Assembly (NCBI RefSeq): GCF_000220835.1 | Contig: NZ_GL985606.1 | Coordinates: 2,355,480-2,419,479 of the forward strand | Length of the DNA: 64,000 nucleotides | Origin: Actinomyces sp. oral taxon 448 str. F0400 | GTDB taxonomy: Bacteria; Actinomycetota; Actinomycetes; Actinomycetales; Actinomycetaceae | Reading direction: 5' to 3' | In this document: positions 54,018 through 60,473 of the stretch, piece after piece | How the letters are laid out: every line of letters starts with the position of its first letter | How positions within the stretch are numbered: the stretch's first letter is position 1 | The notes under the pieces: generated by a model | Told to the model about the DNA's origin: nothing | The model's database searches: none | The model's input: the letters and a program-made list of their open reading frames with translations, nothing else | Program-made: the position numbers and the translations under genes

Positions 54018-55655
54018 TCAATCCTCCCGATCGGGGGCGTCGCAGGCGCCGGGCGCATCCGACGCCTCATCCTCGGCCCGCTCGCGGGAGGCGCGCTCAC
54101 GCCAGCCGACGAAGAGCCCCCGCCCGGCGGCGGAACCGGCGGGAATCGACTCGGGCGCGGACACCTCCTCGGTCACCGGTGCCGGTTCGACGCCGGAGTC
54201 CCGGGCGAGCGGAGCTGTTCCGGCTTCCGTCCCGCGCCGCGGCACCCGATGGCCGACGTTCTCCCTCTGCTGTCCGTTCCGCTCAGTGGGCTCGCCCCGT
54301 CCGTTCCGCTCGCGATCGGTCGTCTCCCACCGGTCGGTGTCGCCACGGGCTTTCGCACCGGCCCCGGCATCCCCGGCGTCCTCATGCAGACCGCGGGCGA
54401 CGCCGGCACTCGCCCGGGTCCCTCGAACGGCCAACCGACGGGTGCCCGGGTGGGAGATCACCGCGACGGCGACGAGCCCGACACCGATCTCCAGAGCGAT
54501 GAAGAGGCACAGATGCCCCCAGTGAGGACCGACCTGCGTCATCCGGCCCGGGCCGACAGGCCCGGACGCCGCCAGCGCCAGCGCCAAGCAGCCCAGCGTC
54601 ACCACTGCGGTCGCGACGAGCGCGGCGATAACGGCCTCGCCAAGCCCGAGCACGGCCAGACGCCGGCGCCGGGGCCAGGAGGCGACCATGGTGCCGGCCG
54701 TGATGACCAGGGGCAGGTAGAGGCCGACGGTCCCCAGCGGCGCGGTGGGCAGCAAACCCAGCAGCGGCATGGCGGGGACCGGCCCCGTCACAACGGAGTC
54801 GGGCGAGAACAGGGTGCCGGCGCCCACTGCGAAGCCGGGACCGGCGAGCCACGCCAGCGCCCATACGAGCATGGTCGGCGCCCAGCAGGCCTGCAGTGCG
54901 ATGAGCCCGAGAGACGCCAGAATCCCTCCGGCCGACAGTGCGTCGTGAAGTCGTCCGACGCGTCCCGCGCCTTCGACGACGGCGACCACGGTGACGGCGG
55001 CGACCAGCACGACCAGGGCGAGGAAAGTGCTGCGCACGAGTGCGAGCGCGGGGTCCGTCCAGCACGGGCGGCGCGCCCACCACCGGTCCACATCCCGCCG
55101 ACCCCGTCCCGAGCGCTGAAGGCGGCCGACGGCGATGAACGCCGTTAGCCCGCCAAGACCGAGCACGGCCGTCCACAGGCGGGAGCCCGGCGGCCCGGCG
55201 GCCACGACAACGAGAGCGGCGGTCACCACCGCGGCCAGGACCGTCCATAGGCCCGACAGCAGGCCGGCGAGCCGCGAACGACGCACCGACCACCGGGTGA
55301 TGAGTGCCTGGAGGACGGTCAGTCCCAGCAGCGGCAACCCGAGGACACCGTCGGGGCTCGCCGCGCTCCCCCAGGTCCCTCCCAGCCCCAGAGCCCACAG
55401 GGCGGTGCCGGCGCGCACAGCGGCGCCCACCGACAGGGCCGCGGCGGCGTCCATGGAGGAGGTCGAGACATAGACGGCGAGAGTCGGGACGACGACGAGG
55501 AGCCAGCCCGCCAGAACGGACTCGACCCCGGCGCGTACGGCGAAGGGCCAGTCGGTGGGAACCGCCCGGTACCGCCTGCCGGTACGGGCGGGGGGACCGC
55601 CCTCCGAGGCCGAGACCACTCGTCTCAGCCGTGCCGGGTTACCGCCTGTGCTCAC
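54018..55655 (-). CDS. DUF6350 membrane protein
   Basis: 545 residues, about nine to ten membrane helices in the first 400 (for example [19 protein letters not shown]), then a hydrophilic tail rich in Arg, Glu and Gly that ends [16 protein letters not shown]. Its place after sucCD is the usual one for DUF6350 in actinobacteria. It overlaps the sucD stop by 4 nt. Function unknown. Confidence 0.85.
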
Positions 55656-56602
55656 GCCCGCTCCGCCGCGCCGGCAATCTCCCGGTACAGCCCGCGGGCG
55701 AGGGAGGCGGTCTCAGCGGGTGTGCGTCCAACGCGAACGCCCGCGGCCTCCAGGGCCGCCTTCTTGGCCCGGGCGGTGCCGGAAGATCCGGAGACGATGG
55801 CGCCGGCGTGCCCCATGGTCCTCCCCTCCGGGGCGGTGAAACCGGCCACGTAGGCCACGACGGGTTTGGTCACGGAGGAACGGATGTAGGCGGCGGCGCG
55901 CTCCTCCGCATCTCCCCCGATCTCCCCGATCATGACGACCAGCTCGGTGTCCGGGTCCGCCTCGAAGGCGGCGAGGGCGTCGATATGGGTGGTGCCGACG
56001 ATCGGATCGCCGCCGATGCCGACGCAGGTGGTGAAGCCGAGGTCGCGCAACTCGTGCATGAGCTGGTAGGTCAGCGTGCCCGATTTCGAAACCAGGCCGA
56101 TGGGGCCGGGGCCGGTGATGTCAGGCGGGGTGATGCCGACGTTGGAACGGGCTGGGGAGATGATGCCGGGGCAGTTGGGGCCGATGACCCGCACGCCGCG
56201 GGAGGCGGCGTAGGCGCACGCGCGAGCGGTGTCCGCCACCGGGATTCCCTCGGTGATGACGACGACCAGGCGCAGCCGCGCGTCAACGGCCTCGATGATG
56301 GCGTCCTTGGCGAAGGCCGGGGGGACGAAGAGGACCGAGACGGTAGCGCCGGTGGCCTCCTCCGCTTCGGCGACGGTCCCGTAGACGGAGACCTCGACCG
56401 CGCCCGGGACGACGCCGAGGGTCTGCGCCCCGGGGCCGGCGGGCTCGACGTCGAAGGCGACACTCGTGCCGGCCTTGCGCGGGTTGACGCCGCCGACGAT
56501 CTTCGTGCCGGCGCCGAGCATGCGCCGAGTGTGCCTGCGGCCTTCGGAACCGGTCATGCCCTGGACGATGACGCGGTCGTTCTCGGTCAGGAAGATGCTC
56601 AT
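55652..56602 (-). CDS. sucD: Succinyl-CoA ligase alpha subunit
   Basis: Forms succinate and ATP/GTP from succinyl-CoA with SucC. 316 residues. The phosphorylated histidine is H265 in [23 protein letters not shown] and the CoA-binding MTGSEGRRH are conserved. It starts 3 nt after sucC and overlaps the DUF6350 gene by 4 nt, so sucC-sucD-DUF6350 form one unit. Confidence 0.97.
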
Positions 56603-56605
56603 GGT

Positions 56606-57799
56606 TCAGGCTCCCAGCTTCGTGACGATGTCGTGGGCGATCTCGGTGACGACGTCGGCGGCGCCGTCCATGGACTCCACGACGGTGACGCCGGGCAGGG
56701 CCGCCTCCGCGAGGATCCGGCGGGCCAGATCGGCATTGTTGCCGTCCAGGCGCACGACGATGGGCTTGTCGACGTCCTCCAGGGAGTCGACGGCGGTGAC
56801 GATGCCCTCGGCGACGGTGTCGCAGGAGGTGATGCCGCCGAAGACGTTGACGAGGATGGCGTGCACCTGCGGGTCGGAGGCAACCACCTCCAGGCCGGTG
56901 GCCATGACCTGGGCGGAGGACCCCCCGCCCAGGTCGAGGAAGTTGGCCGGTCGCATGCCGCCGTGGTGCTCGCCGGCGTCGGCGATGACGTCGAGAGTGG
57001 ACATGACCAGTCCCGCACCGTTTCCGAGCACCCCGACCTGCCCCTCGAGGCGGACGTAGTTCAGGCCCGCGTCCCTGGCCCGGGCCTCCAGCGGATCCGC
57101 ATCGGCGATGTCTCTGAATGCGGCGTGCTCGGGATGGCGGAAGGCGGCGTTGTCGTCCAGAGAGACCTTGCCGTCCAGAGCCAGGATGGCGCCGTCGGCG
57201 GCGGCCAGCGGGTTGACTTCCACCAAGGTGGCGTCCTCGGCGGTGAAGACCTCCCACAGCCGGGTGATGACGTCGGCGATGCGGGCGGCGGTGAGCCCGG
57301 GCTCGAAGCCGGCCGCCTCGACGATGCCCGCGGCGACTTCGTCCGTTATGCCGGTCAGGGGGTCGACGGCGATGCGGGCGAGCGCCTCGGGACGCTCCTC
57401 GGCGAGGGTTTCGATGTCCATGCCGCCTTCGCGCGAGCACATGGCCAGATAGCGGCGCTCGGCGCGGTCCAGGAGAATGGAGACGTAGAATTCGGAATCG
57501 ATGTCGGCGCCGGCGCAGATCAGGACCGTACGCACCGTATGACCTTTGATGTTCATTCCGAGGATCTCGCGGGCCCGCCGCTCGGCCTCGAGGGCGCTGC
57601 GGGCGAGCTTGACTCCGCCGGCCTTGCCGCGGCCGCCCGTCTTGACCTGGGCTTTGACGACGACCAGCGACGAACCGGCGTCGAGCAGGCCGGCGGCGAC
57701 CTCACGCGCCTGCTCGGGGGTTGCAGCGGTCGCGCCGTCGAGCACCGGCACCCCGTGCGCTCGGAACAGGTCTCGCGCCTGATACTCATACAGATCCAT
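56606..57799 (-). CDS. sucC: Succinyl-CoA ligase beta subunit
   Basis: ATP-grasp subunit partner of SucD. 397 residues from ATG 57799 (MDLYEYQARDLF), with GGAAGG 9 nt upstream; ATG 57808 would add three residues but stands too close to the ribosome site. The long open frame up to 58759 is antisense to pfk. KAQVKTGGRGKAGGVKLA, EVNPLA and NFLDLGGGSSAQ are family motifs. Confidence 0.97.
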   Translation of the reverse strand: MDLYEYQARDLFRAHGVPVLDGATAATPEQAREVAAGLLDAGSSLVVVKAQVKTGGRGKAGGVKLARSALEAERRAREILGMNIKGHTVRTVLICAGADIDSEFYVSILLDRAERRYLAMCSREGGMDIETLAEERPEALARIAVDPLTGITDEVAAGIVEAAGFEPGLTAARIADVITRLWEVFTAEDATLVEVNPLAAADGAILALDGKVSLDDNAAFRHPEHAAFRDIADADPLEARARDAGLNYVRLEGQVGVLGNGAGLVMSTLDVIADAGEHHGGMRPANFLDLGGGSSAQVMATGLEVVASDPQVHAILVNVFGGITSCDTVAEGIVTAVDSLEDVDKPIVVRLDGNNADLARRILAEAALPGVTVVESMDGAADVVTEIAHDIVTKLGA

Positions 57800-57806
57800 A
57801 CGGTCC

Positions 57807-57819
57807 ATCCTTCCGGGTC
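57807..57819 (-). repeat. 13-bp sequence shared with the pfk upstream region (inverted copy)
   Basis: On the minus strand GACCCGGAAGGAT, the ribosome-site region of sucC, is identical to the plus-strand sequence at 58088-58100 in front of pfk. Confidence 0.6.
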
Positions 57820-58087
57820 CGCGTGCAGCGGGCCCGCGGTCGATCTTCGCGCGCAGCGGGGCGGGCTCGATGATGAGGGTAGCGTGCCGGGGGTTCCGCG
57901 CGCGGGTGGTTCCGCATGCGAGTCGGGACCAAGGTCCGTATCGGAGGCTCTCCGGTTCCGGGATGCGGAAGCCGGTGCCCAGCTCCTCCCCCGGCCCTCG
58001 GCGCCAGCGCGAGTCCCGGGACCTCCGGTGCAGACGCGAGCGCCGTGCACGAGCCACAATGGTCTTACGGGACGCTTCATCCCGCCC
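57820..58087. other. Divergent intergenic region between sucC and pfk
   Basis: The 307-base gap between the two start codons must contain both promoters, but no convincing -35/-10 pair was found. It is flanked by inverted copies of GACCCGGAAGGAT at 57807-57819 and 58088-58100. No gene seen. Confidence 0.5.
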
Positions 58088-58106: not shown

Positions 58107-60473
58107 ATGTCAGCCGACAACACCGATGCCGCCTCCCCCGCATTCACACCGGCCGGCGAACCAACGGGCTCCGGTGAGCCGGTGCGCATCGGGGTCCTGA
58201 CCTCCGGCGGCGACGCGCAGGGCATGAACGCCGCGGTGCGCGCCGTCGTTCGCACGAGTCTGCGCATGGGAGCCCAGCCATTCGCGGTGATGGAGGGCTG
58301 GTCCGGCGCCGTCGCCGGCGGAGAGGGTATACGCCCCCTGGAATGGGACTCGGTGGGATCGATCCTCCACCGCGGCGGCACCATCATCGGCACCGCCCGG
58401 TCCGCGGCCTTCCGCGAGCGCGACGGACAGCTGGCCGCCGCCCGCAACCTGCTCGAGCACGGCATCGACAGGCTCGTCGTCATCGGCGGGGACGGGTCGC
58501 TGACCGGCACCAACGAGTTCCGCAGGAACTGGCCGGGGCTCGTGGCCGAACTCGCCGAGCGCGGGGAGATCAGCGCGCAGACCGCCGCCGCCCACCCGGC
58601 CCTTATGGTCACGGGCATCGTCGGGAGCATCGACAACGACCTGGTCGGCGCGGACATGACCATCGGAGCGGACTCGGCCCTGCACCGCATCCTGGAGGCG
58701 ATCGACGACATCTCCTCGACGGCCGCCTCCCACCAGCGCACCTTCGTCGTGGAGGTCATGGGACGCCACTGCGGCTACCTCGCCCTCATGGCGGCCGTCG
58801 CCGGCGGGTGCGACTACGTACTGGTGCCCGAACTCCCCCCCGCCGACGGCTGGGAGGAGGACATGTGCCGCAAACTCGCCAAGGGCCGTGAGGCCGGCCG
58901 TCGCGAATCCATGGTCATCGTCGCCGAGGGCGCCACCGACCGCGCGGGCAACCGCATCAGCGCCGACGACGTCAAGCGCGTCCTGGCCGAGAAGCTGGGC
59001 GAGGAGGCGCGCGTGACGATCCTCGGCCACGTCCAGCGCGGGGGCAAGCCGAGCGCCTACGACCGGTGGATGTCGACTCTGCTGGGATGCGCGGCGGCCC
59101 ACGAACTGCTCATCGCCACCCCGCAGTCCGAGCCGGTCATCATCGCCGAGCGCCACAACCGGATCAGCCGCCTGCCCATGATGGAGCAGATCCATGCCAC
59201 GCGCGCCGTCAAGGACCTCGTGGCCGACGGGGATTACGACGGCGCGGTGGCCGCCCGCGGCGCGAGCTTCGGCGAGATGCTGCAGCTGTTCGAGACCATG
59301 TCCACCCCGCCGGAGCTCGACCCCGACGTCGTCGCCTCGCATCAGCAGGACGGGGTCCGACCCAAGCGCGTCGCCATCATCCACGCGGGCGGTCTGGCGC
59401 CCGGCATGAACACGGCCGCGCGCGCCGCCGTGCGACTGGGGCTCGACCACGACTTCACCATGCTCGGCATCTACGGGGGCTTCCCCGGTCTCCTCGACGG
59501 CGAGGTGCGCGAGCTGAGCTGGGACGATGTCGAGGGCTGGGTCGGGGACGGCGGCGCCGAGCTCGGCACGCGCAGAGAGGTCCCCACCATCGAGCAGCTC
59601 TACGCACTGGGTCGGGCCATCGAATCCCACGAGATCAATGCTCTGCTCATCATCGGCGGCTACAACGCCTACCTGGCGGCCCACGAGCTGGTCACGGAGC
59701 GGGACCGCTACCCCGCCTTCAACATCCCGATCATCTGCGTGCCCGCCTCGATCGACAACAATCTGCCCGGCAGCGAGCTGAGCATCGGTGCGGATACGGC
59801 CCTGAACAACGCCGTCGGCGCCCTGGACTCGATCAAGCAGTCCGCCGCCGCGTCCCGGCGCTGCTTCGTGGCCGAGTCGATGGGCCGCAAATGCGGCTAC
59901 CTCGCTCTCATGAGCGGTATCGCCACAGGTGCTGAACGGGTCTACCTCAACGAGGACGGCCTCACGCTGGCTCAGCTCGCCCGGGACTCGGCGCGCATGG
60001 TGGAATCCTTCCGCTCGGGACGCGACCTCTACCTGGTGATCCGCAATGAGAGGGCAAGCGAGAACTACACCCTGGACGTGCTCGCCAAGATCTTCGCCCA
60101 GGAGGGCCGCGGCCTGTACGACGTGCGCCACGCCGCCCTCGGCCACCTGCAGCAGGGGGGCGACCCGTCCGCCTTCGACCGGATCATGGCCACCAAGCTC
60201 GTGGCGCACGCCCTCGACCTTCTGGCGGATCAGCTGGGGGCGGGCACTCACCACTCAAGCTATGTGGGCCTGACGGGCGGGCGAATCACGCACCGCCGTC
60301 TGGAGCGCATGAACGACGAGCTCGATCTGAGTTCGCGCCGCCCTCTCCACCAGTGGTGGATGGGCCTGCGCGAGGCGATCAGCCTGGTCAGCCAGAACAT
60401 CGGGGTGATTCCCTTGGAGGACATGCCCGACTTCAGCGCGTCGGTCAACGCCGCGGCATCCCCCCAGGACTGA
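58107..60473 (+). CDS. pfkA: Eukaryotic-type tandem 6-phosphofructokinase
   Basis: 788 residues, two fused PfkA-like halves (about 25-390 and 400-770), instead of the roughly 320-residue bacterial enzyme. N-half: GGDAQGMNAAVRAV, IGGDGSLTGTNEFR, and catalytic D176 in GSIDNDLVGADMTIGADSALHRI. Gly after GGD and before SIDND fits ATP, not PPi, as donor. C-half: GGLAPGMNTAARAAVR, GGYNAYLAAHE (GGDGS lost) and ASIDNNLPGSELSIGADTALNN (D550 kept, next Asp changed to Asn). This is the pattern of animal and fungal PFK, where the C-half has become allosteric. GGAAGG is 8 nt before the ATG. Confidence 0.95.
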   Translation: MSADNTDAASPAFTPAGEPTGSGEPVRIGVLTSGGDAQGMNAAVRAVVRTSLRMGAQPFAVMEGWSGAVAGGEGIRPLEWDSVGSILHRGGTIIGTARSAAFRERDGQLAAARNLLEHGIDRLVVIGGDGSLTGTNEFRRNWPGLVAELAERGEISAQTAAAHPALMVTGIVGSIDNDLVGADMTIGADSALHRILEAIDDISSTAASHQRTFVVEVMGRHCGYLALMAAVAGGCDYVLVPELPPADGWEEDMCRKLAKGREAGRRESMVIVAEGATDRAGNRISADDVKRVLAEKLGEEARVTILGHVQRGGKPSAYDRWMSTLLGCAAAHELLIATPQSEPVIIAERHNRISRLPMMEQIHATRAVKDLVADGDYDGAVAARGASFGEMLQLFETMSTPPELDPDVVASHQQDGVRPKRVAIIHAGGLAPGMNTAARAAVRLGLDHDFTMLGIYGGFPGLLDGEVRELSWDDVEGWVGDGGAELGTRREVPTIEQLYALGRAIESHEINALLIIGGYNAYLAAHELVTERDRYPAFNIPIICVPASIDNNLPGSELSIGADTALNNAVGALDSIKQSAAASRRCFVAESMGRKCGYLALMSGIATGAERVYLNEDGLTLAQLARDSARMVESFRSGRDLYLVIRNERASENYTLDVLAKIFAQEGRGLYDVRHAALGHLQQGGDPSAFDRIMATKLVAHALDLLADQLGAGTHHSSYVGLTGGRITHRRLERMNDELDLSSRRPLHQWWMGLREAISLVSQNIGVIPLEDMPDFSASVNAAASPQD

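What the first reader, a model, noticed from the sequence alone, without database searches (positions are those of the whole stretch)
58107..60473. Eukaryotic-type double phosphofructokinase in a bacterium
Two fused PFK halves with an active N-half and a C-half that lost GGDGS and one catalytic Asp match animal and fungal PFK rather than bacterial PfkA. The C-half may bind an allosteric effector. Gly at both donor-specificity positions predicts ATP use, although PPi-dependent PFK activity is known in Actinomyces.
Basis: partly seen in the sequence, partly recalled or inferred. Interest (0 to 1): 0.6.

Follow-up and report, generated by a model that had tools for sequence, protein, structure and literature searches.

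The report
Bacterial double phosphofructokinase like ours
This bacterium makes the same two-part, apparently allosteric version of the glycolysis enzyme phosphofructokinase that animals and fungi have, and the family trees suggest that this version first arose in bacteria and only later reached animals and fungi.

Summary
Window 58107-60473 (+) encodes a 788-aa fused double phosphofructokinase. It scores 951 bits to the "eukaryotic" model TIGR02478 (cut-off 708), and its predicted fold superposes on human PFKL/PFKP (TM 0.9).

The N-half keeps every catalytic residue. The C-half has lost the ATP/Mg site (GGDGS to GGYNA; SIDND to SIDNN) but keeps a complete fructose-phosphate pocket, the animal sugar-bisphosphate effector site.

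It is not a eukaryotic gene in a bacterium. Intact fused genes occur in 35 of 37 sampled genus members (two more are frameshifted) and patchily across Actinomycetota, Chloroflexota, Cyanobacteria, Pseudomonadota, Acidobacteriota, Bacteroidota, Lentisphaerota and others. N-halves of bacteria, animals and fungi form one clade, and so do C-halves. A recent duplication (AU p=8e-6) and a separate bacterial duplication (p=3e-4) are rejected. Animal and fungal PFKs nest inside bacterial doubles; bacterial monophyly is rejected under the mixture model (p=0.002) but only borderline under LG+G4 (p=0.06-0.07).

Most likely it is an ATP-dependent, allosteric PFK-1 with fructose 1,6-bisphosphate as the probable C-half ligand (inferred). 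A Chloroflexus paper (PMC8004040) already noticed bacterial members, so this is a new member of a known kind. The bacterial-origin reading is the interesting part.

The parts
58107..60473 (+). double (fused) ATP-type 6-phosphofructokinase gene, 788 aa
58093..58099 (+). ribosome-binding-like site GGAAGGA, 7 nt before ATG
   Evidence: sequence read; function inferred
58107..58181 (+). N-terminal extension, residues 1-25, predicted mostly disordered
   Evidence: pLDDT < 50 for residues 1-21
58182..59306 (+). N-half PFK domain (residues about 26-400): catalytic half, all active-site residues kept, Gly at both donor positions
58485..58499 (+). GGDGS (residues 127-131), Mg-ATP motif, intact
58530..58604 (+). 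about 22-aa insertion after GGDGS (residues 142-166), shared with animal and fungal PFK and absent from single PfkA and from the L137 double
58626..58640 (+). SIDND (residues 174-178), catalytic Asp pair, intact
59361..60413 (+). C-half PFK domain (residues about 419-769): regulatory half, ATP/Mg site lost, sugar-phosphate pocket kept
59655..59669 (+). GGYNA (residues 517-521), degenerate GGDGS
59748..59762 (+). SIDNN (residues 548-552): first Asp kept, second changed to Asn

Best explanation
The gene encodes an ATP-dependent phosphofructokinase-1 of the fused double type. Shown by sequence: the N-half has a complete catalytic site with ATP-type donor residues; the C-half has lost the ATP/Mg site but keeps the fructose-phosphate pocket; each half is orthologous to the corresponding half of animal and fungal PFK. 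Inferred: the N-half phosphorylates fructose 6-phosphate with ATP, and the C-half pocket binds a fructose (bis)phosphate, most likely the product fructose 1,6-bisphosphate, and stabilises the active state, giving feed-forward control. Origin: one ancient duplication and fusion in bacteria, most likely in or near Chloroflexota, spread among bacterial phyla. It is inherited as a genus-wide gene in this Actinomyces-like genus, and animal and fungal PFK1 descend from the same bacterial stock.
For: Family and fold: TIGR02478 951 bits; human PFKP 706 bits; AlphaFold model pLDDT 92, pTM 0.92, matching human PFKL R-state at TM 0.91/0.96 over 754 columns. Catalytic N-half and disabled C-half: residue table for 97 bacterial and 6 eukaryotic doubles. 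Sugar pocket in the C-half: R481, R566, M, E, R655 and H661 equivalents all present in the window and in 91-97 of 97 bacterial doubles. The eukaryotic pocket binds FBP in solved structures (PMC8802628; PMC12203962). Single shared fusion: N-halves 100/96, C-halves 100/100, recent duplication p 7.8e-6, separate bacterial duplication p 3.2e-4; shared 22-aa insertion. Bacterial origin: eukaryotes nested in all concatenated trees; bacterial monophyly p 0.0021 with the mixture model. Spread: 35 of 37 genus genomes intact, 25 of 396 Actinomycetota, 13 of 121 Chloroflexota, 42 of 150 of the Anaerolineae genome's class, many further phyla.
Against: No enzyme data. With LG+G4 the AU test does not reject bacterial monophyly at 5% (p 0.07 and 0.06). 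Eukaryotes were sampled only from PDB (human and two yeasts), so protist doubles could move the root of the eukaryotic branch. As I recall it, the 1995 A. naeslundii enzyme study found only PPi-dependent PFK activity in extracts (the library confirms only that PPi-PFK was reported), which would mean the double enzyme is weakly expressed, inhibited in vitro, or not ATP-dependent. In Chloroflexus aggregans the double gene is transcribed far less than the single one (9 vs 1312 TPM, PMC8004040). The FBP ligand is inferred by analogy.
Confidence: 0.8

Rival explanations
1. Actinomyces acquired the gene from a eukaryote (animal or fungal host) by horizontal transfer.
For: 48% identity over the full length to human PFKP; the NCBI model is named 6PF1K_euk; these bacteria live on animals (general knowledge).
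Against: Nearest relatives are Actinomycetaceae, Arsenicicoccus, Propioniciclava, Accumulibacter and Contendobacter (100/100), not eukaryotes; a window-plus-eukaryote clade has p 0.026; eukaryotes form one nested clade; deeper branches are Chloroflexota.
Confidence: 0.03
2. A recent, lineage-specific duplication of ordinary PfkA that converged on the eukaryotic layout.
For: Actinomycetota also hold single PFKs.
Against: N and C halves are only 37% identical; N-N with human is 53% and C-C 45%; AU p 7.8e-6 against N_WIN+C_WIN and 3.2e-4 against a separate bacterial duplication.
Confidence: 0.01
3. The fused PFK was present in a common ancestor of bacteria and eukaryotes, or arose in eukaryotes and moved once into bacteria early, so that bacterial doubles are a sister clade.
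For: With LG+G4 the AU test does not exclude monophyletic bacterial doubles (p 0.06-0.07).
Against: Anaerolineae, L124 and L112/L115 branch below the eukaryotes with mostly starred support (100/100 above the Anaerolineae group, 99/98 above L112/L115); the mixture model rejects it (p 0.0021); diversity and depth are greatest in Chloroflexota.
Confidence: 0.13
4. The double protein is not a working ATP-PFK in the cell: glycolytic flux runs through the PPi-PFK, and the double acts mainly in another condition or with another donor such as GTP.
For: PPi-PFK reported for A. naeslundii (PMC10715109); the genome has a PRK06555 PPi-PFK (697 bits); human PFKs accept GTP (PMC7702303); low transcription of the Chloroflexus double (PMC8004040).
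Against: Complete ATP-type catalytic site conserved in most of 97 bacterial N-halves (D103 95, G104 97, G124 92, D127 97, D129 97); intact in nearly every genus member.
Confidence: 0.2

Closest known systems
Animal PFK1 (human PFKP, PFKL, PFKM), TIGR02478
   Same: Double architecture, 22-aa N-half insertion, catalytic N-half, disabled C-half with kept sugar pocket, C-terminal QWW tail motif, fold (TM about 0.9)
   Different: 44-48% identity; C-half keeps first catalytic Asp and R171 equivalent, which eukaryotes lost; N1 Lys386 not kept; N2 pocket only partly kept (Y308, L538); no 6PF2K match found in the genome
Chloroflexus aggregans Cagg_2702 (747 aa, '6PF1K_euk superfamily', PMC8004040)
   Same: Bacterial fused double PFK of the same family; Chloroflexus loci align over the full length
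   Different: Chloroflexus clade; its genome also transcribes a single 'bacterial' PFK more strongly
Accumulibacter / Contendobacter double PFK (L066, L092)
   Same: Nearest well-supported group outside Actinomycetota, 63-64% identity
   Different: Different phylum; implies transfer between phyla
Single bacterial PfkA (E. coli, Geobacillus)
   Same: N-half active site
   Different: One domain of about 320 aa, no insertion, both effector and active site in one domain
PRK06555 PPi-PFK (G000:C1:2057.6 kb)
   Same: Same superfamily, same genome
   Different: Asp104/Lys124 donor motif; 409 aa; other clade

Membership tests
Fused double PFK1 (TIGR02478) | Whole-protein score above curated cut-off 708 | tested here: met
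   951 bits, residues 27-763
Fused double PFK1 (TIGR02478) | Two tandem PFK domains in one polypeptide | tested here: met
   one frame, no stops
Fused double PFK1 (TIGR02478) | N-half catalytic residues intact, Gly/Gly donor positions | tested here: met
Fused double PFK1 (TIGR02478) | C-half ATP/Mg site lost | tested here: met
   D103Y, G104N, D129N, R252Q equivalents
Fused double PFK1 (TIGR02478) | C-half sugar effector (F') pocket | tested here: met
   six of six checked residues present
Fused double PFK1 (TIGR02478) | Each half groups with the corresponding half of animal/fungal PFK | tested here: met
   N 100/96, C 100/100
Fused double PFK1 (TIGR02478) | Fold of solved animal/fungal PFK1 | tested here: met
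   TM 0.91/0.96 to 8w2g
Fused double PFK1 (TIGR02478) | N2 adenine-nucleotide activator site | tested here: inconclusive
   Y/R/S/L/D/F/K at the positions of F308, R310, S377, F538, D543, F671, K678; the position list is partly from memory, F308, F537/538, F670/671 and D543 from PMC8802628 and PMC3875906
Fused double PFK1 (TIGR02478) | ATP-PFK activity, tetramer, FBP/AMP activation | not testable with these tools
   needs enzyme assay
Fused double PFK1 (TIGR02478) | Host makes fructose 2,6-bisphosphate (6PF2K, PF01591) | tested here: inconclusive
   no match in G000 and none above cut-off in 38 relatives, none in 29 double-bearing genomes, but the controls held no positive
Single bacterial PfkA | One domain, about 320 aa | tested here: not met
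   788 aa, two domains
PPi-dependent PFK | Asp104 / Lys124 | tested here: not met
   Gly/Gly in N-half

The most novel reading that the evidence does not exclude
The duplication, fusion and conversion of the C-half into a sugar-bisphosphate effector half, described in the reviews read here as a eukaryotic invention, happened in bacteria (probably Chloroflexota). Animals and fungi inherited a ready-made allosteric double PFK by transfer from bacteria, before F2,6BP became its activator.
Probability: 0.72. Interest if true: 0.68.

Novelty: new member of a known kind. Interest (0 to 1): 0.48.

Why it matters
Papers and the 2025 review (PMC12203962) present the tandem duplication and the C-half effector site of PFK1 as eukaryotic. 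If bacterial doubles are the ancestral stock, the sugar effector site arose in cells where no F2,6BP synthase was found, and its original ligand (probably FBP) can be tested on bacterial proteins. For Actinomyces it raises a concrete question: why keep an allosteric ATP-type PFK beside a PPi-PFK.

Tried and rejected
Eukaryote-to-Actinomyces transfer (AU p 0.026) and recent duplication (p 7.8e-6) were rejected. A genus fission of the gene was considered because two relatives show two frames: G018 and G012 carry frameshifts with no N run, L132 a scaffold gap, so none is evidence of separate genes. Searching for pre-fusion pairs of unfused halves gave none; the closest oddity, L137, is fused, and no other Nitrospinota genome held had it. 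Conserved operon context was sought: pfk is divergent from sucCD, and an sucD match also lies near the A. oris and A. urogenitalis pfk loci, but no functional link follows. Literature searches for earlier descriptions of bacterial doubles found one paper (PMC8004040); Bapteste 2003 is not in the library and could not be checked. Searches failed on input or on a paper not held, and script 37 on a missing row; those needed were redone or replaced.

Full report
Observation. The frame at 58107-60473 (+) is real: 788 aa, ATG start, GGAAGGA 7 nt upstream. It holds two PFK domains (335 and 284 bits) and matches TIGR02478, the NCBI model of eukaryotic PFK1, over residues 27-763 at 951 bits against a cut-off of 708. 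Human PFKP is matched end to end at 706 bits; single PfkA from Geobacillus or E. coli reach 200-237 bits. The AlphaFold model from 39 related sequences has pLDDT 92 and pTM 0.92. Its best PDB match is human PFKL in the R state (TM 0.91 of query, 0.96 of target, 44% identity), followed by PFKP, PFKM and yeast; single PfkA follow at TM 0.36-0.37 of the query.

Sites. On an alignment of 97 bacterial and 6 eukaryotic doubles with single PFKs, the window's N-half keeps R72, D103, G104, G124, D127, D129, R162, M169, R171, E222, R243, H249 and R252 (E. coli numbering). Gly at 104 and 124 is the ATP pattern; the PPi pattern is Asp/Lys. In the C-half D103 is Tyr, G104 Asn, D129 Asn and R252 Gln, so Mg-ATP catalysis is not expected, while R162, M169, R171, E222, R243 and H249 are all kept. 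That pocket is the F' effector site of animal PFK (PMC12203962), which binds fructose 1,6-bisphosphate in solved human structures (PMC8802628). Its residues are present in 91-97 of 97 bacterial doubles. The AMP/ADP activator pocket N2 is only partly kept. No 6PF2K match was found in this genome or in 29 double-bearing genomes, and none above cut-off in relatives, but the control genomes contained no clear positive, so absence of F2,6BP is likely rather than shown.

Distribution. Of 37 genus genomes 35 have the intact fused gene; two (G012, G018) have both halves in two frames, which look like frameshifts. In the rest of the order it is rare (G047; G194). It occurs in 25 of 396 Actinomycetota, 13 of 121 Chloroflexota and 42 of 150 genomes of the class of the Anaerolineae bacterium L122, some with two copies. 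A scan of 84,980 species genomes, cut at 80 loci, found it also in Oscillatoria, Accumulibacter, Contendobacter, Bacteroidota, Acidobacteriota, Lentisphaerota, Spirochaetota and others. Several are isolates (Oscillatoria PCC 10802, Arsenicicoccus, Propioniciclava, Mycolicibacterium agri, Mobiluncus), so MAG contamination cannot explain the spread.

Phylogeny. In trees of separate halves, all N-halves (bacterial, animal, fungal) form one clade and all C-halves another (leaving L137 aside; 100/96 and 100/100). Forcing the window's two halves together (recent duplication) is rejected at p 7.8e-6, and forcing all bacterial halves together (independent bacterial duplication) at p 3.2e-4. An insertion of about 22 residues in the N-half, absent from single PfkA, is shared by bacterial and eukaryotic doubles. 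Concatenated trees rooted with single PfkA put Anaerolineae sequences (L122, L172-L181), L124 and L112/L115 below a group that contains the animal and fungal enzymes and all other bacterial doubles. The AU test of monophyletic bacterial doubles gives p 0.073 and 0.061 under LG+G4 and 0.0021 under LG+C20+F+G4 PMSF. A window-plus-eukaryote clade gives p 0.026. The window lies with Actinomycetaceae, an unnamed actinomycetote, Arsenicicoccus, Propioniciclava, Accumulibacter and Contendobacter at 100/100.

Other PFKs of the genome. C1:2057.6 kb encodes a 409-aa PRK06555 PPi-PFK (697 bits, GGDDT/PKTIDND), the likely source of the PPi-PFK activity reported for A. naeslundii (PMC10715109). C1:1796-1797 kb encodes a PFK_mixed-like protein with PKTIDND, whose Mg-binding Asp/Glu is replaced by Gly (GGGGT) in all 28 genus copies read. 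The double is therefore the only one of the three with the complete ATP-type pattern.

Mechanism. Most likely the N-half phosphorylates fructose 6-phosphate with ATP, and the C-half senses a fructose bisphosphate, probably the product, and favours the active state. Catalysis, tetramer formation and ligand are inferred from conserved residues and from the human enzymes; only anatomy and ancestry are shown.

Precedent and novelty. [quoted passage not shown] The papers read here describe the duplication as eukaryotic. Bapteste 2003 could not be read. The protein is thus a new member of a known kind; the wider bacterial spread and the nesting of eukaryotes are the points of interest.

Limits. Eukaryotes were represented by human and two yeasts taken from PDB alignments. 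Yeast, E. coli and S. aureus query letters were recalled and matched the PDB chains completely. Organism names of G handles are not given; the genus is called Actinomyces-like because its relatives include A. oris (L138, 81% identity).

Noticed in passing
G000:C1:1796022-1797143 (L002, L184-L213): A second PFK homologue, in 34 of 37 genus genomes, has Gly in place of the Mg-binding Asp/Glu (GGGGT) in all 28 copies read, with Lys124 kept; it may be catalytically altered or regulatory.
   Followed up: partly
G000:C1:2057657-2058526 (L004): Canonical PPi-PFK (PRK06555, GGDDT/PKTIDND) in the same genome.
   Followed up: yes
L137:3501-5510: A Nitrospinota genome has a 746-aa fused PFK whose first half is PfkA-like without the 22-aa insertion and whose second half is highly degenerate: a separate or very deep-branching double; absent from four other genomes of its phylum.
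   Followed up: partly
L059, L060, L074, L075, L086, L087: In several Chloroflexota the double PFK gene is followed directly by one or two single PFK genes; the two examined (L059, L074) have the PPi-type motif GGDDT/PKTMDND.
   Followed up: partly
G650, G686, G699, G702, G718: Some Chloroflexota of the Anaerolineae genome's class carry two double PFK genes; in most of these one copy is close to the L122 clade and the other is not.
   Followed up: no
L126: Assembly named Xylanimonas cellulosilytica 352_XCEL has a double PFK nested with Schaalia at 100/100; the name may be wrong.
   Followed up: no
L214, L215 (G018, G012): The double PFK is frameshifted in two genus genomes, at the linker and (G018) also near the start; probably sequencing errors.
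   Followed up: partly
window 55652-58000 (-): sucC and sucD lie divergently upstream of pfk; an sucD match is also found near the A. oris and A. urogenitalis pfk loci.
   Followed up: partly
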